A DNA stretch of 19,355 nt from JAFGIT01 sp016929465 [NCBI: Candidatus Coatesbacteria bacterium] (lineage in GTDB: Bacteria; B130-G9): positions 1 to 19,355 of the forward strand of contig JAFGIT010000329.1 in assembly GCA_016929465.1 (NCBI GenBank). The letters run 5' to 3'. The notes under the pieces are model-generated. The model made no database searches. It saw only the letters and a program-made list of their open reading frames with translations, and was not told where the DNA came from. Positions 6,748 through 19,355 of the stretch are shown piece after piece; position 1 is the first letter of the stretch; each line of letters opens with the position of its first letter. Position numbers and translations under genes: made by a program.

Positions 6748-7374
6748 TCATCTCTCCAGGCGTGAGATTTTCTTCTTGACCTGCTCAGTCAGGTCATCAA
6801 GGAATGAAGTGGCCTGCTCCGATTCCATTCCGGAGATCTTGTCGGCCAGCACTTCCGAGAATTCTGCCTTATTCTGGGTGTTGCCGGAGTCAGAGGCCGC
6901 TTCTTCTGCGGTGCCGCCCTCCAGAGGCATGGTAGGCCCGATGTCTGCCAAGAGGTTCACCGAGTCGGCGCCCACACCGACAATCAAAGTCCTTCCCAGA
7001 ACCTCGACAACGGCGATGTACTTCCTCTCGACGATGTGCGTGACCGAAAGAACGGTCGCGATCCTTCCCGAGCCGAAGCGCTTACCTCGCATGAACTTCT
7101 TCATGCCGAATCCCAGCAATATGATCATTCCAATGATAACCAGAAGGACGATAAACATCCGTATCGAGAGGCTTGCGAATGATGGCTCTTCGGGGGGGCT
7201 GGTCCCTGACGGCGGGGGAGAAGAGAGACCTCCCAATTCCCGGTCTAGATAATCCTCTTGGCACAGGACGGGGACTCCGCAGGCGATGAAGCAAAGGAAC
7301 GCAAGAATCGCAATTGCGGTGATCGGGCGGCTCATGTCCCTTGGGGGCTTCCGGAGTGAGGTGCTAAATGCCAT
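6748..7374 (-). CDS. fliO: Flagellar biosynthesis protein FliO
   Basis: About 208 residues. The N-terminus has a hydrophobic, signal-like stretch (SRPITAIAILAFLCFIACG), and a second membrane segment lies near residues 72-92 (MFIVLLVIIGMIILLGFGMK). The FliO domain follows: RIATVLSVTHIVERKYIAVV, then LGRTLIVGVGADSVNLLADI. FliO is the small membrane chaperone of the flagellar type III export gate, helping FliP to assemble. The C-terminal third is charged and low-complexity. The start at 7374 lies 12 bases after the fliN stop; an ATG at 7335 (MSRPITAIA...) would put the signal-like segment at the very N-terminus and is a real alternative. Unusually, no fliP, fliQ or fliR follows. Confidence 0.8.
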   Translation of the reverse strand: MAFSTSLRKPPRDMSRPITAIAILAFLCFIACGVPVLCQEDYLDRELGGLSSPPPSGTSPPEEPSFASLSIRMFIVLLVIIGMIILLGFGMKKFMRGKRFGSGRIATVLSVTHIVERKYIAVVEVLGRTLIVGVGADSVNLLADIGPTMPLEGGTAEEAASDSGNTQNKAEFSEVLADKISGMESEQATSFLDDLTEQVKKKISRLER

Positions 7375-7386
7375 CCTGAGCCCCGA

Positions 7387-7701
7387 TCAACCGGCAAAAG
7401 GATTGACGATTTCTGCAATACGCAGCCCGTAGGTATCCTCGATAACCGTTACATCCACCTTGCCGAAGATCGAGCCATTTACATTCAAGTCGAGGCTCTC
7501 GCCAACAGGCCGATCGAGCTCTATAACAGTGCCGACTCTCATCTCGATAAGCTCTCTGATTGTAATCGTAGCATCGCCGAGCATGACGCTGATGCGCACG
7601 GGTATATCAGCAAGGAATTCTATGTCTGCCTTTGAATCATTTGTTTTGCCAAGGGCCCCGGAGAGTGCATTCTTCTCGGAAATATGCAGAGTCTTCGACA
7701 T
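7387..7701 (-). CDS. fliN: Flagellar motor switch protein FliN
   Basis: About 104 residues, essentially one SpoA (surface presentation of antigens) domain. FLADIPVRISVMLGDATITI and LDRPVGESLDLNVNGSIFGK, followed by VIEDTYGLRIAEIVNP, are diagnostic of FliN. It forms the lower C-ring of the flagellar switch and binds FliM and the export ATPase regulator FliH. The N-terminal region is shorter than in E. coli FliN (137 residues). ATG at 7701 (MSKTLH) is preferred, with GAGAGAGAAG upstream; a TTG at 7719 would add six residues. It ends 12 bases before fliO. FliM, its usual neighbour and partner, is not between it and fliL. Confidence 0.9.
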   Translation of the reverse strand: MSKTLHISEKNALSGALGKTNDSKADIEFLADIPVRISVMLGDATITIRELIEMRVGTVIELDRPVGESLDLNVNGSIFGKVDVTVIEDTYGLRIAEIVNPFAG

Positions 7702-7845
7702 CAAGCTTCTCTCTCGCAATAAGCCTCGGGGCAGATGCCCTGTGACTCGTGACTATCCCGGGGATATCTAATTGGATACCGCGCCCACTTGGGCAAATGA
7801 CTCACATCCTCGTGCATCGTGCGGCGGTCACCTGTCTGAAAGCCT
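7702..7845 (-). other. Gap between fliL and fliN with no fliM
   Basis: These 144 bases hold no supported gene. A 62-residue frame across it (7701-7889) overlaps the end of fliL and has no flagellar similarity. A small palindrome, GGGCA-GA-TGCCC, lies at 7729-7740. I see no trace of a fliM sequence. Confidence 0.6.
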
Positions 7846-8397
7846 TTACAATATCTGGAAGTCGGTGAAGTAAACGGAGGTAACGACATTCCGGAGATTC
7901 GGCAGTTTGTCCAGCGCGCTCTTTATGTCTTCTTTGAGCTTCATCTTTCCATGTTTAGTCGAGATCGTCTTCGAGCTCTTGGAGGACAATACGGTCAGGA
8001 TCGCATCTCTTACCTGTGTCGATTTGTCCTTCAGCAGCTGTTCGTGATCCACGGCGCCATATCCCAGTGCGATGCTTATCTTGAGGTAAGAGCTGTTATC
8101 AGCCAGATTCACCACGAAAGGTTGCAGCTCAACGGTTCCTAATTCCTGGACATCGCCCTGGCTAGCTGAGCTACTGTCCCCCTCGGTACCGCTCGATTGG
8201 GAGTCCTTCGAGCCACCAGAATCAGCAGATTCAGAACCCATGGTGAGCCACCACCAGACACCCAACCCAGCGCCCGCGAAGGCGACGAGTAGAACGAGAA
8301 GGAGTATGAGGATCTTGACTAGGGATATCTTCTTCTTGACGTTCGCTGGCTTCTTTTGGCCACCCGATTCTTTGGCCTGCGCAGTGTCATCAGCCAC
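7846..8397 (-). CDS. fliL: Flagellar basal body-associated protein FliL
   Basis: A 183-residue single-pass membrane protein. After a charged N-terminus (GGQKKPANVKKK) comes a transmembrane helix at about residues 26-50, then a Ser/Gly/Asp-rich linker (SADSGGSKDSQSSG). The FliL domain includes LQPFVVNLADNSSYLKISIA and the C-terminal RNVVTSVYFTDFQIL. FliL surrounds the stator units in the periplasm and supports motor torque. The start is GTG at 8397, the only suitable codon before the membrane helix, preceded by AAGGA six bases upstream. It lies 78 bases after motB in a single run of minus-strand motility genes. Confidence 0.9.
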   Translation of the reverse strand: MADDTAQAKESGGQKKPANVKKKISLVKILILLLVLLVAFAGAGLGVWWWLTMGSESADSGGSKDSQSSGTEGDSSSASQGDVQELGTVELQPFVVNLADNSSYLKISIALGYGAVDHEQLLKDKSTQVRDAILTVLSSKSSKTISTKHGKMKLKEDIKSALDKLPNLRNVVTSVYFTDFQIL

Positions 8398-8475
8398 GAT
8401 TATCCTTCCCCATTAATGTGTTAGATAAATACCAAATTCTAAGATAGCAGGTGGATGTCCCGGAAGCAATTGCAT

Positions 8476-9249
8476 TTATCTACTCTTCGTATTTGCGTTG
8501 TCCAAGTATGATTGCATCAATGCGTACCAGAAGGACTCCTCGTCCGGCGGATTCGTTATGAAGACATCCACCCGGCGATTGGCTTTCCTCTCGTCCTCGC
8601 TTGCCTCTTCAGGATAGACCGGATTGAACTCCCCGAAAGCGCCAATTGAGGCTCCATGGGGCGTGAACGACTTCTCCTCCAGTATGACCTTGAGTACATT
8701 CTCTGCCCTTCGACCGGATAGCTGCAAGTTGGAGTCATAACCACCGCCGGTAACTGGCGAGCGGTCTGTGTTCCCCTCGACACGCACCGTCTTAGCAAGC
8801 CGAGTTGCGAGAGCTGCTATTCTGTGTAATAGGGAGTGAAGCCTCTCTTCGACCACACTCGAGCCCGACGCAAACATCACGTCGGAAGAGATGGAGACCT
8901 TGATCCCTCGCTCGTTCCTGGACACATCGACCGAATCGTCGAGCTTCTCAGTTGTTATGAACTGCTTCATCTCATCGATGGCGGCCTTGATCTCGTCCCG
9001 TTTGTTCTTGAGTTGCACGCTCTCCACCCCCCCCGATGGCGGATTTCCCTCCCCCATCGAGCCTATGTCGAGAACCGTGAACTCATTCTGAAGAGCCTGA
9101 AGTGCGCGATTCAGATTATCGCTGTCCGTCGAAGCCATTGAGAATAGCAGGACGAAGAAAGTCAGAAGCAGCGTCATCATGTCCGAGAAGGTAAGCATCC
9201 AACTCTGATCGGCGCCGCCCTGGGCTCCTTGCTTTTTCTTCCTAGACAT
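8476..9249 (-). CDS. motB: Flagellar stator protein MotB
   Basis: About 257 residues from the ATG at 9249 (MSRKKKQ). The single membrane helix QSWMLTFSDMMTLLLTFFVL holds the ion-binding Asp (Asp23), equivalent to D32 of E. coli MotB and D24 of PomB. The periplasmic OmpA-like domain binds peptidoglycan: VEGNTDRSPV, NLQLSGRRAENV and KANRRVDVFI are its motifs. The chosen start has GAAGG eight bases upstream and overlaps the stop of the preceding MotB-like gene by eight bases; an in-frame start at 9297 would add 16 residues without support. This is the copy expected to form a working ion channel with MotA. Confidence 0.9.
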   Translation of the reverse strand: MSRKKKQGAQGGADQSWMLTFSDMMTLLLTFFVLLFSMASTDSDNLNRALQALQNEFTVLDIGSMGEGNPPSGGVESVQLKNKRDEIKAAIDEMKQFITTEKLDDSVDVSRNERGIKVSISSDVMFASGSSVVEERLHSLLHRIAALATRLAKTVRVEGNTDRSPVTGGGYDSNLQLSGRRAENVLKVILEEKSFTPHGASIGAFGEFNPVYPEEASEDERKANRRVDVFITNPPDEESFWYALMQSYLDNANTKSR

Positions 9250-9958
9250 CTTCTGCGCCTTCGTCGTCAACCAAATCCTCGACATTTCCAATATCAATCA
9301 GCATGGTCACCCTTCGGTTGAATTTCTCCTCTCCATCCTTGGCCGAGAGCGGATTGAACTCCCCGTAGCCATAGCTCGCGAGTTTCCCCGGAGACACTCC
9401 GGCCTCAATCAAGAAATTCGTGACCGCCTCGGCTCTCTCGATTGAGAGCGCCCATCCCGATGGAAAACCCGAGGCCGATATCTCCGATGCATCACAGTGT
9501 CCCTCGATGATGGCATGGCTCTCTGCATCTGCTATCAGTTCTGCAACCATCGTCAGAAACTCGGCGCTCTCCTGCCTTAGACTGGCTGATCCTTCGTCGA
9601 ACAGCACCCGCTCTGCCGTATCAATCCTTATCCCCTCCGAGCTATACCGAATACGAATACCGTGGCGCTTCTCGCAGTATTTTTTGAACGCGCGCAGCTT
9701 CTCGATCATGGACTCTGATGCTTCCCGTTTCGCCTCTTCCTTTGACCTCTCGACTGGCAACATCCCACGGTCAGTGAATAGCCCAAGTCCTCCGGATATG
9801 CCGAATGTGCCTCGCAGCGACCCAATCGCCTCCTTCGTTCGCGTATCGTCAAATGATGAATAGGCCACAAGGAGAATGAAGAACGCGCACATGAGTATGA
9901 TGAGCGAGGTAAAAAGCGGGACCCAACCGGGGAGCTCTTTGGATTCTTCTTCGGCCAT
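9242..9958 (-). CDS. MotB-like protein lacking the channel Asp
   Basis: A 238-residue MotB homologue directly downstream of motA. The membrane helix WVPLFTSLIILMCAFFILL aligns without gaps to the helix of the next gene, but Ser18 stands where the ion-binding Asp should be, and no other acidic residue lies in the helix. The segment after it (TRTKEAIGSLRGTFGIS) resembles the plug region of PomB. The OmpA-like domain looks intact: IIEGHCDASEI, LSIERAEAV, YGYGEFNPL and NRRVTMLID. The start has AGGAG six bases upstream; 88 bases separate it from motA. It may pair with MotB in a mixed stator, act as an inert or regulatory partner, or serve as a wall anchor. Both genes look intact, so it is not a relic. 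Confidence 0.88.
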   Translation of the reverse strand: MAEEESKELPGWVPLFTSLIILMCAFFILLVAYSSFDDTRTKEAIGSLRGTFGISGGLGLFTDRGMLPVERSKEEAKREASESMIEKLRAFKKYCEKRHGIRIRYSSEGIRIDTAERVLFDEGSASLRQESAEFLTMVAELIADAESHAIIEGHCDASEISASGFPSGWALSIERAEAVTNFLIEAGVSPGKLASYGYGEFNPLSAKDGEEKFNRRVTMLIDIGNVEDLVDDEGAEDV

Positions 9959-10046
9959 ATTGCGCTCCTAAATCAGAGGCGTGAATGCTTCGGAGTATGC
10001 ACGGCCTCGCCGTAGTCCGACCGCCGCATCTCTAGCCTCATCCAAT

Positions 10047-10805
10047 TTATTCGAAGGATGTGCCGCGCGCCTTGGGCGAGAGGAAGGTATTCAGCTTCTG
10101 CTCGACCAAACGGGGGTTGTCCCCGCTCTGAATCGACATGATTCCCGAGACGATCATCTCTTTGCGCAGCCTCTCCTCCTGTGACCTCTTCTTCAGCTTC
10201 GCAGCAAGAGGGATGAAGATGAGATTGGCCATCAGCGCGCCGTAGAATGTAGTGATCAATGCCACGGCCATCGCGGGGCCGATCGAACTCGGGTCGTCCA
10301 TCGATTGCAGCATCAGGATCAGACCTATCAGGGTGCCGACCATCCCGAATGCAGGTGCATATCCGCCCATCGCGTCTAGTATCGAGGCGCCGGCCTTATG
10401 GCGATCGGAGACGTAATCCATTTCGGTCTCGAGTATCTCCTTCACCAATTCCGCCTGCGTGCCGTCAACCGCGAGACTGATGCCCTTCTTCAAATACTCA
10501 TCGTCGATCTCTTTGGCCGCGCTCTCCAGAGAAAGCATTCCATCCCTTCTGGCCTTCTGAGAGAAGGAAACCAGTTGCTCCACCAGATCCGTAGGGGGCT
10601 TCACTTTGACAAAGACCGCATTCTGGATCACGCCCGTCAGACCGATCATGTCGCTCAACGGGAAGCTAATCAATGCTGCGCCGACTGTGCCACCCGCGAC
10701 GATCAGCAGCGACGGAACGTCGATGAATGCACTAACGGAACTCCCCATCCCAAATAGGACCAGGCCGCCACCGACCAGAAGTCCTACGATTGTAGCTAAA
10801 TCCAT
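10047..10805 (-). CDS. motA: Flagellar stator protein MotA, PomA type
   Basis: A 252-residue inner-membrane protein with four predicted helices (about residues 4-22, 32-50, 148-168 and 178-203) and a large cytoplasmic loop between the second and third. It resembles PomA of Vibrio from its first residues (MDLATIVGLL) to MDDPSSIGPAMAVALITTFY. Pro151, Thr158, Pro177 and Thr186 fall at the same numbers I recall for the key PomA residues; the two Thr residues are linked to sodium use. It would form the pentameric ring that pushes on the rotor. It is the first gene of the minus-strand motility run, with a weak ribosome site and no clear promoter. Confidence 0.93.
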   Translation of the reverse strand: MDLATIVGLLVGGGLVLFGMGSSVSAFIDVPSLLIVAGGTVGAALISFPLSDMIGLTGVIQNAVFVKVKPPTDLVEQLVSFSQKARRDGMLSLESAAKEIDDEYLKKGISLAVDGTQAELVKEILETEMDYVSDRHKAGASILDAMGGYAPAFGMVGTLIGLILMLQSMDDPSSIGPAMAVALITTFYGALMANLIFIPLAAKLKKRSQEERLRKEMIVSGIMSIQSGDNPRLVEQKLNTFLSPKARGTSFE

Positions 10806-12678: not shown

Positions 12679-14172
12679 TTGAGGATTGCACTTATTTCGC
12701 CCTATTCCGATATATTCACTCCCGGCCTGAGGAGCATTTCTGCATACCTTCGGGCAAATGGGGTGGATACAAGGCTGATCTTTATCCCGAACCTATACGT
12801 GCACAGGGTGCTCGAGGAGTTTCTGGAGCCATATAATTCCGATGTCCTAAGAGGGGCGACAGAGCTTTGCCGAGATGTCGATATCGTCGCGGTCTCCCTA
12901 TCGACCAACCTCTACAACCGCGCCGTTCAGCTGACCTCATATCTCAAGAAGAGAATCGATGTTCCCTTTGTGTGGGGAGGTATTCACGCAACGATAAGAC
13001 CAGAGGAATGCCTCGAACACGCGGACATCGTCGTGATTGGCGAGGGCGAGGAGACCATGCTCGACATAGCGAAACGCCAGGCGGATCCCGCGGCGTGCAT
13101 GGAAATTCCTAACGTCTGCATAAAGACGAATGACGGCATAAGGAAGAATCCCGTCAGGCCGCTTATCCAGGACCTGGACAGCCTGCCGGCACCCGACTTC
13201 GACAATCCCGACTATAACGTGTTCGATCCCGATGTCGGCAAGTTCGTCGTGCCCGATCTGAGGATGCTATTGAGACTCCATGGGAAGGGACCATCGCATG
13301 GCAAGAACTACCAGAAGTATCTTGCGATCACGACCAGGGGCTGTCCGTTCAGCTGCGCCTATTGCGTCAATGATGTCCTGGTGAAGCTCTATGGCAGGAA
13401 GGGCTATATTAGACGCAGAAGCGTCGAAGCGATCATATCCGAGCTCCAGGCCATAAGGAATCGCTACGAGTTCATCAATCGGATCGTTATTTTCGACGAC
13501 TCATTTCTCGCAGGACCGACCGAATGGATTGAGGGCTTCGCGGCCAGATACAAAGAGAGCATCAACCTGCCGCTCTTCTGCATGTCCAGCCCCAGCAATC
13601 TGTCGAAGAGGAAGCTGGACGCACTCGTCGATGCGGGATTGACCACGATTCAGGTCGGCATCCAGACGGGAAGTGACCGCATTAACGAGATATACAATCG
13701 CGCCGCAAAGAATGCTGACGTTGTAGAGGCGGCCGAATTGCTCAATGGCTATGCGGATCGGCTCCGCCCGCTATATGACATCATAGTCGATAATCCGTAT
13801 GAGACGCACGCCGACCGCATGGAGACCGTGAAGCTCATGATGAAGATTAAGAAGCCCTTCAGCATTCAGCTATTCTCGCTAACGATGTTCCCCGGGACCG
13901 AGATCTGCGAGCGGGCAAAGAGGGACGGCCTGGTCGAGGACGAGATGAAGGAAGTCTACAACAAGTTCTACATGGAGCCGGACGGCAAGTTCACGACGCT
14001 GTTGCTGTCACTAGTAAACCGTGGCGCCCCATCGTGGCTTATGCGCCTTCTGACTCGCGATTCGGTTTCGAGGCTGCTATCCGGACTCTGGCTGGGACCG
14101 ATGTATAAGGCGTTATATGTGCTCAATCTGAAACTGGGCTCGCTGAAGGACAGAGTCACCCGTCGCGTGTGA
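12679..14172 (+). CDS. Radical SAM enzyme with B12-binding-type domain, RS1
   Basis: A 497-residue protein. The N-terminal Rossmann-like B12-binding-type domain (about residues 1-135) shows MRIALISPYS, VSLSTN (72-77), VWGGIHATIRPEEC (98-111) and VIGEGEE (119-125). It lacks the DxHxxG motif that supplies a cobalt-binding His. The radical SAM domain holds TTRGCPFSCAYC with Cys222, Cys226 and Cys229 for the 4Fe-4S cluster, and the SAM-site segment QVGIQTGSDR (325-334). YDIIVDNPYE (366-375) and MFPGTEICERA (403-413) follow. The hydrophobic C-terminal tail (about 440-485) may touch a membrane. Family members methylate or rearrange lipids, hopanoids, tetrapyrroles and antibiotics; the substrate here is unknown. 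The TTG start has GGAG eight bases upstream. Confidence 0.88.
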   Translation: MRIALISPYSDIFTPGLRSISAYLRANGVDTRLIFIPNLYVHRVLEEFLEPYNSDVLRGATELCRDVDIVAVSLSTNLYNRAVQLTSYLKKRIDVPFVWGGIHATIRPEECLEHADIVVIGEGEETMLDIAKRQADPAACMEIPNVCIKTNDGIRKNPVRPLIQDLDSLPAPDFDNPDYNVFDPDVGKFVVPDLRMLLRLHGKGPSHGKNYQKYLAITTRGCPFSCAYCVNDVLVKLYGRKGYIRRRSVEAIISELQAIRNRYEFINRIVIFDDSFLAGPTEWIEGFAARYKESINLPLFCMSSPSNLSKRKLDALVDAGLTTIQVGIQTGSDRINEIYNRAAKNADVVEAAELLNGYADRLRPLYDIIVDNPYETHADRMETVKLMMKIKKPFSIQLFSLTMFPGTEICERAKRDGLVEDEMKEVYNKFYMEPDGKFTTLLLSLVNRGAPSWLMRLLTRDSVSRLLSGLWLGPMYKALYVLNLKLGSLKDRVTRRV

Positions 14173-14272
14173 TGCGCGTCGTGTCACGGCTTGTCGCTGT
14201 CCAATTTGTTCCCCTCCCTCTACATCTTCGGGCAGACACAAGGCCGGCCCCTACGGGTAGTATGAACGTCGC

Positions 14273-14308
14273 GTCCATTCAGTCCATCGCGTCCATTTTG
14301 TCCATATA
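14273..14308. repeat. 9-bp tandem repeat GTCCATNNN, four copies
   Basis: The units are GTCCATTCA, GTCCATCGC, GTCCATTTT and GTCCATATA. The first six bases are invariant and the last three vary freely. Three copies of the same unit occur at 96-122. Confidence 0.8.
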
Positions 14309-14360
14309 GACAGCCTTCGAGGCCTGCAATTTTGGATCGCACTCATACGCCCATCATCGC

Positions 14361-14390
14361 TTGAGCGGAAGCCCCATATAGTGTTAGGAT
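14361..14390 (+). promoter_or_regulatory. Candidate promoter for the RS2-RS3-RS4 operon
   Basis: TTGAGC (14361-14366), 18 bases and TAGGAT (14385-14390), then 20 bases to the TTG start at 14411. The layout is identical to that before RS1, without gaps. Confidence 0.4.
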
Positions 14391-14410
14391 CGGGGCATGG
14401 AGGTTAGGAT

Positions 14411-15907
14411 TTGAGAGTCGCACTTATTTCACCGTATTCGGATATATTCTCGCCTGGTGTGCGGAGCATCTCCGCATATCTGCGCGCGAATGGCGTCGAG
14501 ACCAGGTTGATCTGTTTCCCCAATCTATACGTTCAGCGTGTTCTCCAGGAGTTTCTCGAGCCGTACAGCCCCGAGCTGCTGGATGGGGTTGCACGGCTCT
14601 GTCAGGACGTCGATCTCGTCGCAATATCGCTCATGACCAACCTCTTCGAGCGGGCGATCCAACTCACGTCATACCTCAAAGAGCACCTCTCGGTGCCCAT
14701 CGTCTGGGGAGGGATCCATCCGACAATCCGGCCTGAGGAGTGCATCGAGCATGCGGACCTGGTCGTGATGGGCGAGGGCGAGGGGGCGATACTCGAACTC
14801 GCCGTGCGCGTCGCCAATGGTTACCCGGTCGATGGTCTAGAGAATATCTGCTCCCGCAACTCGAACGGGATCAGGAAGAATCCCGTCAGGCCGCTCATAC
14901 AGGAACTCGACAGCATCCCCCCGCCGGACTTCGACAATCCCGACTACCATGTCTTCGACCCAGAATCTCGCAAATTCGTCGTTCCCGATCTCAAGATGAT
15001 GATGCGCCTTCACGGCAAGGGTCCTCTCCACACCAAGGGTGAGCTCAACTACCAGACGATCACGACGCGCGGATGCCCATTCAATTGCGCTTATTGCGGA
15101 AACAGCGCCCTGATCAAGCTCTATGGCCGCAAGGGTTATCTGAGAAGAAGAAGCGTGGATAACATCATCTCGGAGCTCGTGACAGTGAAGGGCCAGATGG
15201 ATTTCATCAACAGAGTGTGCTTCTTCGACGATTCCTTCCTCGCGGGGAGCACGAAGGAGATCGAGGAGTTCGCCGGGAAATACAAGGCCAAGATCGGGCT
15301 TCCGCTTTTCTGTCTCTCCAGCCCAAGCAATATAACGCCGGAGAAGCTCGACCCGCTCGTCGATGCTGGCCTCACGGCGATCCAGGTCGGCATCCAGACA
15401 GGAAGCGACAGGATCAACAGCATTTACAACCGCACCGTGAAAAATGAAGCGGTTCTGAAGGCGGCCAAGCTGATAAACCACTATGGCGACAGGTTGCTCC
15501 CGCTTTATGACGTTATCGTCGATAATCCGTATGAATCGCCCTCTGACGGCCTCGAGACGGTCAAACTGCTGATGCAGCTCAAGAAGCCCTTCACGGTCCA
15601 GGTGTTTTCGCTGACGCTCTTTCCGGGGACAGAGCTATACGACCGCGCCAGCAAGGACGGCCTGATCAAGGACGAGACCAAGGAGATCTATGACAAGTTC
15701 TACATGGAACGAGAGGGCAAATACTCGACCCTCTTGATGGCCCTGGTGAACCGCGGCGCCCCGAAGTCGCTCATGAAATTCCTGACCAGCAAATACGTAG
15801 CAAGACTGCTTTCCTCATCCTGGTTGGGGCCGATATATAAACTGCTCTATATCATTAACGAGAAATTGAGTATTGCCAGAGACAGAATTGCCCATCGATC
15901 TGGCTGA
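14411..15907 (+). CDS. Radical SAM enzyme with B12-binding-type domain, RS2
   Basis: A 498-residue close paralogue of RS1; I count 72 identities in the first 100 residues without a gap. The cluster cysteines fall at the same numbers (CPFNCAYC, Cys222, Cys226, Cys229). Other shared parts are VWGGIHPTIRPEEC, MGEGEGA, LCLSSPSN, IQVGIQTGSDRIN, YDVIVDNPYE and LFPGTELYDRA. The DxHxxG His motif is absent. The C-terminal tail is again hydrophobic (LLMALVNRGAP, WLGPIYKLLYII). The start is TTG with GGAGG upstream, and the upstream region mirrors that of RS1. RS3 follows closely. Two such similar copies retained in tandem suggest related but distinct substrates, or two positions on one substrate; the actual reaction is unknown. 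Confidence 0.88.
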   Translation: MRVALISPYSDIFSPGVRSISAYLRANGVETRLICFPNLYVQRVLQEFLEPYSPELLDGVARLCQDVDLVAISLMTNLFERAIQLTSYLKEHLSVPIVWGGIHPTIRPEECIEHADLVVMGEGEGAILELAVRVANGYPVDGLENICSRNSNGIRKNPVRPLIQELDSIPPPDFDNPDYHVFDPESRKFVVPDLKMMMRLHGKGPLHTKGELNYQTITTRGCPFNCAYCGNSALIKLYGRKGYLRRRSVDNIISELVTVKGQMDFINRVCFFDDSFLAGSTKEIEEFAGKYKAKIGLPLFCLSSPSNITPEKLDPLVDAGLTAIQVGIQTGSDRINSIYNRTVKNEAVLKAAKLINHYGDRLLPLYDVIVDNPYESPSDGLETVKLLMQLKKPFTVQVFSLTLFPGTELYDRASKDGLIKDETKEIYDKFYMEREGKYSTLLMALVNRGAPKSLMKFLTSKYVARLLSSSWLGPIYKLLYIINEKLSIARDRIAHRSG

Positions 15908-15931
15908 ATGGGAGATTGAGCCGCACCCCGC

Positions 15932-15944
15932 GGAGAGGGGATTG
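15932..15944 (+). promoter_or_regulatory. Ribosome site that decides the RS3 start
   Basis: GGAG (15932-15935) lies six bases before an in-frame TTG at 15942. From there the protein begins a few residues before the (R)ITLISPYGDI strand, where the other three paralogues begin. Starts at 15873 or 15888 would overlap RS2 and add a non-conserved extension. Confidence 0.55.
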
Positions 15945-17474
15945 CTGCTCGATGGCCCTGCACCCAGGATCACGCTGATCTCACCCTACGGAGATATCAC
16001 CTGCTTCGGGATAAGGCTCCTGGCCTCCTGTCTCAAGCAGGCGGGCTTCAACGTCAGGATGATCTTCCTCCCGGTCTCCAGCCTCGAGTGTCGCGGCGAC
16101 ATCCCTTCGAACATCTATAAATACCCAAGGGCAGTGCTGGAGCAAATAGCCGAGCTCTGCGTCGGCTCCCTATTCGTAGGTGTCTCATTCATGACGAACT
16201 ACTACGACCGGGTGACCCAGCTCTGCAAGTTTTTGAAGCACAACCTCGACATACCGGTCGTCCTGGGCGGAATCCACCCCACTCTCGAGCCGGAAGAATG
16301 CGCCGCATTCGCCGATTATCTCTGCGTCGGAGAGGGTGAAGAAGCGATTGTCGAACTTGCGGTCAAGTTGGCGAGGGACAACGGGGCAGGGGAGATCAGG
16401 AACATCTGGCCGACCGAGGACGGTGCGCCGGTCTTCGGCCCCCTCAGACCGCTGATCAGGAACCTCGACTCGCTGCCGTTTCCCGATTACGACCTTAGCG
16501 ACGACCACGTCCTTTTCGACGACGACATCATCAGAATGACGCCGGACCTTCTGCAATTCTTTCTCCAGGAGGGGCCCGTCAAAACGGTGACCGGGGGCTC
16601 CTATTACATCACGCTGACGAGCAGGGGCTGCAAATTCAACTGCACATACTGCTGCAACACCGCACTCAGCAAGATGTATCCCGGCGAACCCTGGCTGCGA
16701 TACAGATCGCCCCAGAACATCGTCGATGAGATAGCCGGGATCGCCGAGAGAATGCCCTTCGTGGGCTCGGTGTTCTTCTGTGACGACTCTTTTCTGGATC
16801 GCGGCGTATCGGAGCTCGACCGCTTCCGGGAGCTCTATAGGAAGCACGCCGGATTGCCCTTCTTCTGCCTGGGGACCCCGCTCGGGATCACGAGGGAGAA
16901 GATGGAGATACTGACCGACGCGGGGCTCAGATATATCCAAATGGGCATCCAGACCGGAAGCCCCAGGACCGCGAGGCTCTACAAGCGGAGAATCGAAAAC
17001 GACAAGCTGCTCCAGGTTACCGACATACTTCATGATTTTGCAGATAAGACGCTGCCGCCGCGATATGACGTGATAGTCGATAATCCCTTCGAGACGAGCG
17101 AGGACGTTGCGAAGACGGTCAGATTGCTATCGAAAATCAAGCGGCCATATTTCATCCAGTACTTCTGCCTGACACTGCTCCCTGCAACCGAGCTATTGAG
17201 GCTCGCAAAGGAGGAGGGAATAATCGAGGACGTCATCGCCGAGGTCTATAGAAAGCAGCTGTTCAACAAGCGAAAGACCTACCTGAATTCGCTTCTGTAT
17301 CTCCTCAATACACCTTTTCCTCCTTTTCTGATAAGGTGGCTCTCGACGAAGCCCTTCAGGCTCTTCTTCGACAGGCGCTGGTTCGAGCGAATGATGGGGC
17401 TTATCGTCCGGCTCGAGACGAGGCTGCTCGGGGCACCAAGCAAAGGTATTAAAGGAATCTTGAGAAGGAAATGA
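15942..17474 (+). CDS. Radical SAM enzyme with B12-binding-type domain, RS3
   Basis: About 510 residues from the TTG at 15942 (533 if the TTG at 15873 is used, overlapping RS2 by 35 bases). It is more divergent than RS1 and RS2. The N-terminal domain has ITLISPYGDI, VGVSFMTNYYDR and VLGGIHPTLEPEEC with CVGEGEE. The cluster motif is CKFNCTYC (residues 230, 234 and 237 in the short numbering), followed by CN. The FFCDDSFLD, MGIQTGSPR and YDVIVDNPFE motifs are kept. The later PGTE motif reads PATE (LLPATELLRLAK), unlike its paralogues. The C-terminus is hydrophobic and basic (YLLNTPFPPFLIRWLS). The last codons overlap the RS4 start (ATGA), so RS3 and RS4 are co-translated. Confidence 0.87.
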   Translation: MLLDGPAPRITLISPYGDITCFGIRLLASCLKQAGFNVRMIFLPVSSLECRGDIPSNIYKYPRAVLEQIAELCVGSLFVGVSFMTNYYDRVTQLCKFLKHNLDIPVVLGGIHPTLEPEECAAFADYLCVGEGEEAIVELAVKLARDNGAGEIRNIWPTEDGAPVFGPLRPLIRNLDSLPFPDYDLSDDHVLFDDDIIRMTPDLLQFFLQEGPVKTVTGGSYYITLTSRGCKFNCTYCCNTALSKMYPGEPWLRYRSPQNIVDEIAGIAERMPFVGSVFFCDDSFLDRGVSELDRFRELYRKHAGLPFFCLGTPLGITREKMEILTDAGLRYIQMGIQTGSPRTARLYKRRIENDKLLQVTDILHDFADKTLPPRYDVIVDNPFETSEDVAKTVRLLSKIKRPYFIQYFCLTLLPATELLRLAKEEGIIEDVIAEVYRKQLFNKRKTYLNSLLYLLNTPFPPFLIRWLSTKPFRLFFDRRWFERMMGLIVRLETRLLGAPSKGIKGILRRK

Positions 17475-18955
17475 AAGTCACTCTGATATCTCCATACCTC
17501 GACGTGATCGCGCTTGGCATTCGGGGCATTTCGTCATTCCTTAAGGCAAACGGCCACGAATGTGAGCTCATCTTTCTGCCAGACCACAAGTCGCTCCTGA
17601 AAGACGATCCCCACTTCGAAGAGCGCTATCCCGACGGTCTCATGGAAGATGTGGTCCAGGCCTGCTCGGAGTCTGACGTGGTCGGAGTCTCACTCATGAG
17701 CAACTACTTCGACAGGGCAGCGCAGATCACGAAGTCGATAAAGGCCGAGCTGAAGGCGCCGGTCGTTTGGGGAGGCATACACCCGACCGTCATTCCCGAC
17801 GATTGCCTGAACCACTGCGACATCGTCTGCGTGGGCGAGGGTGAGTATCCGATGCTGAACCTCGTCAGGGCGATGGAGAAGAAAGAGGACATCCGCGGCA
17901 TCAAGGGGTTCTTCTTCAAGGAGAACGGGAAGGTGATCAGGAACGAACTCGAGCCGCTTTTGCTCGACCTCGACAGCCTGCCCTTCCAGGACTTCGACTA
18001 CGTGGACCACTACACGATCGGCAAAGACGGCAAGAGTCTGGTCCGCATGGACTACGAGATTCAGAAGGACCTTTTTGTGAACGGCCTACGTCTCGGCAAG
18101 GGCCTATGCTTCTACCAGACGATGACCACACGCGGCTGCCCCCACGCCTGCTCATACTGCTGCAACTACGCCTTCCGAAAGCTATTCCCCGGGCAGAAGA
18201 TATTAAGACGCCGTAGCGACGAGAACGTGATGCAGGAGCTGGAACTCGTAAAGGAGAAGATGCCATATATCGAGCTCATCGCATTCTCGGACGACTCGAT
18301 GACCGCAGTCACCGAGCAGGTTATGAAGGAGTTCTGTGAGGAGTATAAGCGGCGCATTGACCTGCCCTTCTTTGTGCTCGTCAGTCCACCCACGGTGACC
18401 GAAAAGAAATGCGAATACATGGTCGATGCGGGGATGCACGTCGTCGAGATGGGCATCCAATCCGGGAGCGATTCCACGAACAAGATGTATCGCCGTTCGA
18501 TTTCGAACGAACAGGTCGTCCGCGCCGCCGAGATTCTGAATATTCACAGGGACCGGATATACCCGCCCGTCTATGACGTGATCCTGGACAACCCGTTCGA
18601 GGTCCGCTCAGATGTGCTGAAGACGATACGCCTTCTATTGGAGCTGCCACAGCCATACATCATCCAGTTCTTCTCGCTGACCTTCTACCCCGGGACTGAG
18701 CTCTGGGATCGGGCCAGGAAAGAGGGCATTGTCGAAGACGCAATCGAGAACGTCTATCGGAAATACTACCACGAATTCAAGAAGTCTTTCCTGAACTTCC
18801 TGGTACTCGCGATCCACAACCGCCTCCCGAAGCCGCTGATAAGAATTCTCTCGAACTCGACCGTGGCCGCCATCCTCGACAGCAAGCCACTCAAGCCGTT
18901 CTGGAAACTCGCCTACAGGCTCCTCACGGGACTGAAGCGGTTGATGGGGAAGTAG
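17471..18955 (+). CDS. Radical SAM enzyme with B12-binding-type domain, RS4
   Basis: A 494-residue fourth paralogue, the only one starting with ATG; the start overlaps the RS3 stop by four bases and has GAGAAGGA upstream. The N-terminal domain shows MKVTLISPYLDV, VGVSLMSNYFDRA and VVWGGIHPTVIPDDC with VCVGEGE. The cluster motif is CPHACSYC (Cys223, Cys227, Cys230), followed by CN. It keeps MGIQSGSDS (Ser in place of Thr), VYDVILDNPFE and FYPGTELWDRA. In the DDSFL motif, Met replaces Phe (SDDSMTAV). Hydrophobic and basic residues end the chain. The region after it turns to the convergent glycosyltransferase, so RS4 closes the array. The substrate is unknown. Confidence 0.88.
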   Translation: MKVTLISPYLDVIALGIRGISSFLKANGHECELIFLPDHKSLLKDDPHFEERYPDGLMEDVVQACSESDVVGVSLMSNYFDRAAQITKSIKAELKAPVVWGGIHPTVIPDDCLNHCDIVCVGEGEYPMLNLVRAMEKKEDIRGIKGFFFKENGKVIRNELEPLLLDLDSLPFQDFDYVDHYTIGKDGKSLVRMDYEIQKDLFVNGLRLGKGLCFYQTMTTRGCPHACSYCCNYAFRKLFPGQKILRRRSDENVMQELELVKEKMPYIELIAFSDDSMTAVTEQVMKEFCEEYKRRIDLPFFVLVSPPTVTEKKCEYMVDAGMHVVEMGIQSGSDSTNKMYRRSISNEQVVRAAEILNIHRDRIYPPVYDVILDNPFEVRSDVLKTIRLLLELPQPYIIQFFSLTFYPGTELWDRARKEGIVEDAIENVYRKYYHEFKKSFLNFLVLAIHNRLPKPLIRILSNSTVAAILDSKPLKPFWKLAYRLLTGLKRLMGK

Positions 18956-19076: not shown

Positions 19077-19355
19077 CTACACTTCCAGAATCGCGTCGAG
19101 CTCCCCCAGCATCCTCGCTTCTGGACAATTCTCCGCTATGAACGCGCGGTGCTGATGGGGTGTGGGGAGGTGGTCCTCGAGGATGGTGCGGGCGTCGGCG
19201 GGGGTGTTGAATAGGAAATTCTCTGGGAAGAGGTTCTTTGCGCCCTTCCAGGCACGGATGAGCGGCATCAGTCCCGCGGCCATCGACTCCGCGAGCGTGC
19301 AGTGGACGCCCTCGCTCAGGCTGCAGGAGAGGAAGTAGTCCTTGTCTGCGAAGAA
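19077..19355 (-). CDS. Glycosyltransferase (GT4-type), C-terminal part, cut by the window
   Basis: The last 92 residues of a protein whose remainder lies beyond the window; the reading frame is open to the edge. SEGVHCTLAESMAAGLMPL contains the EX7E pair (Glu-seven residues-Glu) that binds the nucleotide-sugar in GT-B fold, GT4 family enzymes. WKGAKNLFPENFLFNTPADA is the usual region after it. Such enzymes transfer sugars to lipids or other sugars in cell-surface glycan synthesis. The ATG codons visible at 19283 and nearby are internal, not starts. The gene converges on RS4 with 121 bases between, so it is not in the same transcript but may belong to the same functional neighbourhood. Confidence 0.75.
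   Translation of the reverse strand, partial: FFADKDYFLSCSLSEGVHCTLAESMAAGLMPLIRAWKGAKNLFPENFLFNTPADARTILEDHLPTPHQHRAFIAENCPEARMLGELDAILEV

What the first reader, a model, noticed from the sequence alone, without database searches (positions are those of the whole stretch)
12679..18955. Tandem array of four B12-type radical SAM paralogues, possibly an undescribed pathway
Four consecutive full-length genes on one strand each keep a B12-binding-type N-terminal domain, an intact CX3CX2C motif and the shared GIQ(T/S)GS and YD(V/I)I(V/L)DNP(Y/F)E segments. RS2-RS3-RS4 look like one operon. Family members (BchE, HpnP/HpnR, TsrM, GenK, Fom3) usually act once in a pathway; four diverged copies in tandem suggest successive modifications of one scaffold or a set of related substrates. 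No maturase, carrier or known product gene lies inside the array.
Basis: partly seen in the sequence, partly recalled or inferred. Interest (0 to 1): 0.78.

Follow-up and report, generated by a model that had tools for sequence, protein, structure and literature searches.

The report
Conserved trio of B12-radical enzymes
Four neighbouring genes look like B12-dependent radical enzymes; three of them form an old gene set kept in the same order in all four genomes held of an uncultured bacterial family, and the fourth is a newer copy, so they probably work together on a still unknown cell molecule.

Summary
Four intact genes on one strand each carry a B12-binding and a radical SAM domain, CX3CX2C and the two quoted segments. 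"Four" needs unpacking. RS2-RS3-RS4 is an old cassette: 4 of 4 genomes held of this uncultured family keep its order and strand, although the flanks seen differ between the three genera. RS1 is a faster-evolving duplicate of RS2, seen only here. None reaches the cut-off of any NCBIfam family shown. The RS4 model (pLDDT 92.9) has the fold of cobalamin-dependent radical SAM enzymes. RS2, RS3 and RS4 share the cofactor motifs but differ, each in its own conserved way, elsewhere. Adjacent copies of the subfamily recur in at least 4 of 12 matching genomes outside the family. Four outside loci lie among envelope-polysaccharide or acyltransferase genes; the cassette's own flanks do not hold those gene types. 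I read it as a co-expressed set of methyltransferase-like enzymes acting on one envelope-associated, perhaps lipid-linked, molecule; reaction and substrate are inferred. Pathways with several such enzymes are known (bottromycin): new member of a known kind.

The parts
12679..14172 (+). RS1: B12-binding/radical SAM protein, 497 aa; duplicate of RS2 seen only in this genome
   Evidence: tree: sister to RS2 (96/84), end branch 0.45 against 0.13; dN 0.256, dS 1.61 against RS2
14411..15907 (+). RS2: first gene of the conserved cassette, 498 aa
   Evidence: orthologues 71-75% identical in 3 of 3 other family genomes
15942..17474 (+). RS3: second gene of the cassette, 510 aa (start revised from 15873 by eye)
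   Evidence: orthologues 67-74% identical in 3 of 3 other family genomes
17471..18955 (+). RS4: third gene of the cassette, 494 aa; overlaps RS3 by 4 nt
   Evidence: orthologues 77-79% identical in 3 of 3 other family genomes; AlphaFold2 model pLDDT 92.9, pTM 0.92

Best explanation
RS2-RS3-RS4 is a stand-alone, probably co-transcribed set of three old paralogues of cobalamin-dependent radical SAM enzymes, to which this genome has added a fourth (RS1) by duplicating RS2. Each enzyme most likely reduces SAM at its CX3CX2C [4Fe-4S] cluster, removes a hydrogen from an unactivated carbon and transfers a methyl group from methylcobalamin held by the N-terminal Rossmann domain. The three share the cofactor machinery but keep their own conserved residues elsewhere, so they probably modify different positions of one molecule, or two or three closely related molecules. 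The best guess for the substrate is a membrane or lipid-linked cell-envelope molecule. Shown: domains, motifs, predicted fold, conserved order, RS1 as a duplicate, each paralogue older than the split of the genera. Inferred: cobalamin use, methylation as the reaction, a shared scaffold, and the kind of substrate.
For: Class: Pfam in 4 of 4. The RS4 model aligns over 369-436 of 494 residues with MgmA (Z 27.1), AprD4 (26.7), OxsB (25.4), CysS (25.3), TsrM (23.6) and TokK (20.8); Foldseek ranks the same six first. The residues aligned with TsrM Arg69 (M75 of RS4) and TokK Trp76 (N77) are not histidine (my reading; lower-face residues from PMC13331322, one section read). Set: same order and strand in 4 of 4 family genomes while the flanks seen differ between genera; 4-nt overlap of RS3-RS4. 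Not redundant: 77 positions (one a gap) are fixed within each of RS2, RS3 and RS4 (4 sequences each) but differ between them, most in residues 201-225 and 426-450 (10 each). Old: RS2, RS3 (with the C70 type) and RS4 (with the C339 type) are each 100/100 clades spanning all four genomes. Envelope lean: of 19 subfamily loci outside the family, 5 carry a partner radical SAM gene, 4 AlkP-type phosphodiesterases and 3 LpxL-type acyltransferases, against 1, 2 and 1 of 71 background loci (Pfam). Further copies in this family sit beside a polysaccharide flippase (3 of 5 RS3-like loci) or WbqC (4 of 4 genomes). The C-terminal 60 residues are basic (+8 to +10) and about half hydrophobic.
Against: No substrate gene travels with the cassette: none of the sought accessory genes lies in the window, L009, L010 or L011. 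The query genes for that count came from the counted loci, so the enrichment is partly circular, the 19 loci include pairs from one genome, and some envelope types are not enriched (GT9 2 of 19 against 6 of 71). 14 of the 19 hold no partner gene. The basic C-terminus also marks 46 other B12-radical SAM-like ORFs (mean +6.7 against +8.5), so it is not specific. The best sequence hit in the PDB is AprD4, a dehydratase. The position analysis has no control, only 4 related sequences per group, some changes are conservative (I/L/V), and I had no coordinates to place them at the active site. RS2, RS3 and RS4 are not supported as each other's sisters, though one clade of the 22 family rows is not rejected (p-AU 0.099). 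CobS was found in 1 of 4 genomes, so cobalamin supply is open.
Confidence: 0.4

Rival explanations
1. Same class, but the enzymes of the cassette act on different, unrelated substrates and stay together only through shared regulation or descent as a block.
For: Paralogues are only 38-40% identical with group-specific positions; none of the sought pathway genes nearby; further copies of the RS3 and RS4 type lie on other contigs in 4 of 4 genomes.
Against: Order is kept in 4 of 4 genomes while the flanks seen differ between genera, which favours joint function.
Confidence: 0.25
2. The enzymes carry out other radical chemistry than methylation: ring closure, ring contraction or dehydration of a sugar or lipid, as BchE, OxsB or AprD4 do.
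For: AprD4 is the best sequence hit in the PDB (E 2.5e-6; 1.6e-36 with the 78-sequence profile, over profile positions 155-427 only) and reaches Z 26.7; BchE and HpnJ profiles match below cut-off; one outside pair lies in a polysaccharide cluster (L012).
Against: AprD4 aligns with CX3CX3C whereas RS1-RS4 have CX3CX2C. The methylase MgmA aligns as well as AprD4 (Z 27.1), CysS, TsrM and TokK somewhat less (25.3, 23.6, 20.8). Fold does not settle the reaction.
Confidence: 0.2
3. Gene amplification without a joint pathway: a lineage rich in B12-radical SAM genes keeps throwing up tandem copies.
For: G000 has 29 B12-binding-domain matches at E 0.001 (27 over the cut-off), its relatives 21-31; neighbouring B12-radical SAM genes elsewhere in this genome (C392, C221) and tandem copies in other lineages; RS1 is plainly such a copy.
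Against: RS2, RS3 and RS4 are older than the split of the genera; G001-G003 orthologue pairs have dN/dS 0.13-0.14 (computed); order is kept across three genera.
Confidence: 0.1
4. Members of a known lipid system (ladderane-type TIGR04072, hopanoid HpnJ/HpnR, or tetraether-type pathways).
For: TIGR04072 is the best NCBIfam hit of RS3 and RS4 (115.4 and 114 bits) and the second of RS1 and RS2.
Against: Far under the cut-off of 360. Squalene-hopene cyclase found in 0 of 4 family genomes. Tetraether-synthase-type zinc ribbon found in 0 of the 12 (of 16) matching genomes that I tested.
Confidence: 0.03

Closest known systems
Cobalamin-dependent radical SAM enzymes with solved structures (MgmA 9ccb, TsrM 6wte/6wtf, OxsB 5ul4, TokK 7kdx, CysS 9n1d)
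   Same: Predicted fold over most of the length (369-436 residues aligned, Z 20.8-27.1)
   Different: 15-23% identity; their substrates differ from each other and none is indicated here
AprD4 (6fd2), radical SAM 1,2-diol dehydratase
   Same: Best sequence hit in the PDB, Z 26.7
   Different: CX3CX3C in AprD4 against CX3CX2C; that AprD4 does not need cobalamin is recalled, not tested
TIGR04072 'lipid biosynthesis B12-binding/radical SAM protein' (model name rSAM_ladder_B12)
   Same: Best or second NCBIfam hit of 4 of 4 (96.9-115.4 bits)
   Different: Cut-off 360 not reached
Bottromycin pathway: three B12-radical SAM methyltransferases on one peptide
   Same: Several enzymes of this class in one pathway (PMC5682303, passages)
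   Different: That review gives Cx7Cx2C for those enzymes; short precursor-peptide ORFs were not sought here
Multi-copy B12-radical SAM arrays in Omnitrophota (L042, L043)
   Same: Tandem paralogues, 30-35% identical to RS proteins
   Different: Interleaved with tetraether-synthase-like genes, whose zinc ribbon was found in 0 of 12 genomes tested

Membership tests
Class 1 cobalamin-dependent radical SAM enzymes (OxsB, TsrM, TokK as grouped in PMC13331322) | B12-binding Rossmann domain followed by radical SAM domain and C-terminal helices | tested here: met
   Both Pfam domains over cut-off in 4 of 4; whole fold by model for RS4 only; class
Class 1 cobalamin-dependent radical SAM enzymes (OxsB, TsrM, TokK as grouped in PMC13331322) | CX3CX2C cluster motif (usual radical SAM motif, recalled) | tested here: met
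   4 of 4
Class 1 cobalamin-dependent radical SAM enzymes (OxsB, TsrM, TokK as grouped in PMC13331322) | No histidine at the lower-face position in the loop after strand 3 | tested here: met
   S[LF].[ST]N in 4 of 4; M75/N77 of RS4 align with TsrM Arg69/TokK Trp76 (my reading)
Class 1 cobalamin-dependent radical SAM enzymes (OxsB, TsrM, TokK as grouped in PMC13331322) | Cobalamin bound and used in catalysis | not testable with these tools
   Needs purified protein
TIGR04072 ladderane-associated lipid enzyme | Score at or above the curated cut-off (360 bits) | tested here: not met
   96.9-115.4 bits
HpnJ / HpnR hopanoid enzymes | Score at or above cut-off (577.6 / 650) | tested here: not met
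   HpnJ 69.8-92.6, HpnR 24.6-50.1 bits
HpnJ / HpnR hopanoid enzymes | Squalene-hopene cyclase in the genome | tested here: not met
   PF13243 in 0 of 4 family genomes, which are 83-95% complete
BchE | Score at or above cut-off (481.35) | tested here: not met
   46.7-77.7 bits
AprD4-type diol dehydratases | Score at or above NF033070 cut-off (500) | tested here: not met
   RS1 31.5, RS2 28.7, RS4 36 bits; RS3 not listed
RiPP methyltransferase clusters (bottromycin kind) | Precursor peptide or other RiPP genes beside the enzymes | tested here: inconclusive
   Only ORFs of 80 aa or more were considered in the relatives and 90 aa in the window; short peptides were not sought

The most novel reading that the evidence does not exclude
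A membrane or lipid-linked envelope molecule of this uncultured family is built by three or four successive B12-radical steps (consecutive C-methylations or C-C bond formations) encoded by nothing but a cassette of paralogues, with RS1 adding a species-specific extra step.
Probability: 0.22. Interest if true: 0.72.

Novelty: new member of a known kind. Interest (0 to 1): 0.4.

Why it matters
A review calls cobalamin-dependent radical SAM enzymes a largely untapped reservoir of chemistry, with some 7,000 to 10,000 members (PMC8992657, passages). A cassette of three paralogues that keeps its order while its surroundings change is a clean target: express one, two or three genes and look for stepwise mass shifts. 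The natural duplicate RS1 offers a test of how such an enzyme gains a new role.

Tried and rejected
Hopanoid role: squalene-hopene cyclase found in 0 of 4 genomes. Tetraether-type link: an Omnitrophota neighbour matches tetraether synthase 7tol, but the zinc ribbon is in 0 of 12 genomes tested. LpxL link inside the family: LpxL-type genes exist in 4 of 4 genomes; of five further contigs looked at, four show no B12-radical SAM gene beside the LpxL-type gene by my reading, but in G002 (L151) one lies two genes from another B12-radical SAM gene that is not of the RS subfamily. Flagellar link: the window's upstream flank is flagellar and L022 has a Rod-binding/M23 gene next door, but the G001-G003 flank genes tested are not flagellar. 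One-clade test of the 22 family rows: not rejected, p-AU 0.099; a second test in that script did not finish. CobS in 1 of 4 genomes: not followed. Mmp10 is only a partial Foldseek match and not among the listed VIA rows; that excludes nothing. The 92-aa ORF cut off at 19077-19355 looked to me like a glycosyltransferase, but Pfam finds nothing. Papers: nine searches (open-licence library); I saw listings and abstract starts, none about this cassette; one search found no paper. Passages of PMC9213671 on the Auka genomes did not name this family. One search's ORF choice hid the RS genes of L023 and L026; redone.
Full report
What is there. Four ORFs on the + strand (12679-14172, 14411-15907, 15873-17474, 17471-18955) each pass Pfam's cut-offs for B12-binding and Radical_SAM, and each has one CX3CX2C, one GIQ[TS]GS and one YD[VI]I[VL]DNP[YF]E. 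RS3 probably starts at TTG 15942, behind GGAGAGGGG (by eye). RS2-RS3 are then 34 nt apart, RS3-RS4 overlap by 4 nt, and RS1 stands 238 nt before RS2. The window is all of contig C53 of a 3.19 Mb, 423-contig, 86% complete genome.

Three plus one, not four. RS1 and RS2 are 66% identical; the other five pairs are 38-40%. Three other genomes of the family are held (G001 and G003 of one genus, G002 of another). In 3 of 3, RS2, RS3 and RS4 lie in the same order and strand. Their 19 matches to RS4 at 1e-60 (6, 7 and 6) hold no RS1: the tree places them with RS2, RS3, RS4 or the three outlying types. G002 has one extra gene, with an FGE-sulfatase domain, between RS3 and RS4. In the 74-row tree RS1 and RS2 are sisters (96/84) inside a 100/100 clade with the other RS2 genes, and RS1 has the longer branch (0.45 against 0.13). 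RS1 against RS2 gives dN 0.256 and dS 1.61, near saturation; for two other pairs dS could not be computed. RS1 departs from 10 of 99 columns invariant in the 12 RS2-RS4 sequences; as a control, window RS2 departs from 2 of 101 invariant in the other 11. One RS1 change, M75S, falls in the loop expected under the cobalt; that is inference from the alignment and the section read.

The cassette keeps its order in different surroundings. Non-RS ORFs of the three relatives' cassette loci are shared only between G001 and G003, which are one genus (FtsK-type and DprA-type). The window's listed ORFs find no match in L009, L010 or L011 except the RS genes. The flanks compared are short: L011 is a 9.4 kb contig, L009 12 kb of a longer one, and the window ends 400 bases after RS4. 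On this view there were at least two changes of surroundings with the order intact. Neighbours do not co-vary.

Age and division of labour. RS2 (with RS1), RS3 (with the C70-type copies) and RS4 (with the C339-type copies) are each 100/100 clades; how they join is unresolved, and one clade of the 22 family rows is not rejected (p-AU 0.099). In four sequences each, 77 positions (one a gap) are fixed within RS2, RS3 and RS4 but differ between them, most in residues 201-225 and 426-450 of RS4. The count has no control, some changes are conservative, and I had no coordinates, so that these parts face the substrate is inference.

What class. No protein reaches the cut-off of any NCBIfam family shown (the best 25 of 32 for RS1 and of 28 for RS2, all for RS3 and RS4): best TIGR04072 at 115.4 of 360, TIGR04013 at 109.7 of 251, HpnJ at 92.6 of 577.6. 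RS4 alone finds AprD4 (2.5e-6) and CysS (6.4e-5) in the PDB; the 78-sequence profile finds AprD4, MgmA, CysS, TsrM, TokK and OxsB first. The RS4 model (pLDDT 92.9, pTM 0.92) aligns with these over most of its length; RS1-RS3 were not modelled. AprD4 shows CX3CX3C in the alignment, the RS proteins CX3CX2C.

Distribution. Of 386 genomes searched, 16 match RS4 at 1e-75 or better, the four family genomes included; only the four best candidates per genome were scored, so copies are undercounted. Of the 12 outside the family, at least 4 have directly adjacent copies: G223 three, G044, G270 and G109 two each. G068 has two copies about 8 kb apart and G208 two on different contigs. L019-L026 (proteobacterial or deltaproteobacterial titles, one Nitrospirae) each hold one copy, 39-42% identical, in the 8-21 kb fetched. 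The outside arrays do not match RS2-RS3-RS4 one to one in the tree.

Hints at the substrate. L012, L019, L119 and L121 put subfamily members among envelope genes: LpxL-type acyltransferases (3 of the 4), AlkP-type phosphodiesterases (3), DUF362 (3), flippase (2), Wzy/Wzz-like genes (3), and a second radical SAM gene (4); L126 has the partner gene, phosphodiesterases and APS kinase only. By count, 19 subfamily loci outside the family hold the partner in 5, phosphodiesterase in 4 and LpxL in 3, against 1, 2 and 1 of 71 background loci; GT9 is 2 of 19 against 6 of 71. The 13 family loci hold none of the first three types, and flippase in 3. The partner in L012 shows no B12-binding domain. The queries came from the counted loci, so this is descriptive. 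In the family, the RS3-like extra copy lies beside a polysaccharide flippase in 3 of 5 loci, the more distant copy beside WbqC in 4 of 4 genomes, and G002's cassette is next to a glycosyltransferase. The C-terminal 60 residues are basic and about half hydrophobic, as in other B12-radical SAM-like ORFs. Together this leans to a membrane or lipid-linked envelope substrate, no more.

Judgement. Class membership is near certain; that RS2-RS4 act as a set is likely (about 0.75); methylation about 0.6; one shared scaffold about 0.5; a lipid or lipid-linked substrate about 0.4. These are judgements, not computed, and the checks did not change them. Several such enzymes in one pathway have precedent (bottromycin three, polytheonamide two; PMC5682303, passages), so the kind is known, even though the listings of nine paper searches in an open-licence library showed nothing on this cassette.

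Noticed in passing
L043 1634-17660 and L042 1670-11443: Two Omnitrophota loci hold 5 and 3 tandem B12-radical SAM paralogues interleaved with 4 and 3 related proteins, one of which was tested and resembles tetraether synthase (PDB 7tol, E 1.4e-29). This could be a lipid pathway worth its own study.
   Followed up: partly
L121 2907-17925; L119 1167-20000; L126 7621-16493; L012 1530-18842; L019 6261-17622: Recurring cluster in several lineages: RS-type gene plus partner radical SAM gene (5 of 5), AlkP-type phosphodiesterase (4), LpxL-type acyltransferase (3), DUF362 (3), Wzy/Wzz (3), flippase (2), APS kinase (2).
   Followed up: partly
L010 8844-10064: In G002 a gene with an FGE-sulfatase domain sits between RS3 and RS4, same strand.
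   Followed up: no
L151 9320-14108 (G002 C139): LpxL-type acyltransferase two genes from a B12-radical SAM gene, with a second B12-binding-domain gene beyond it, in a family genome.
   Followed up: partly
G000 C392:7182-9943, C221:1209-4109: Further neighbouring B12-radical SAM genes in this genome, which has 29 B12-binding-domain matches; CobS was found in only 1 of 4 family genomes.
   Followed up: no
window 6748-10805: Flagellar run on the - strand: FliO, FliN-type, FliL, two MotB-type and a MotA-type gene by Pfam.
   Followed up: partly
L132 5804-8091, L133 6449-8861, L134 6241-8555, L135 3760-6003: A more distant paralogue lies directly after a WbqC-family gene in 4 of 4 family genomes.
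   Followed up: partly
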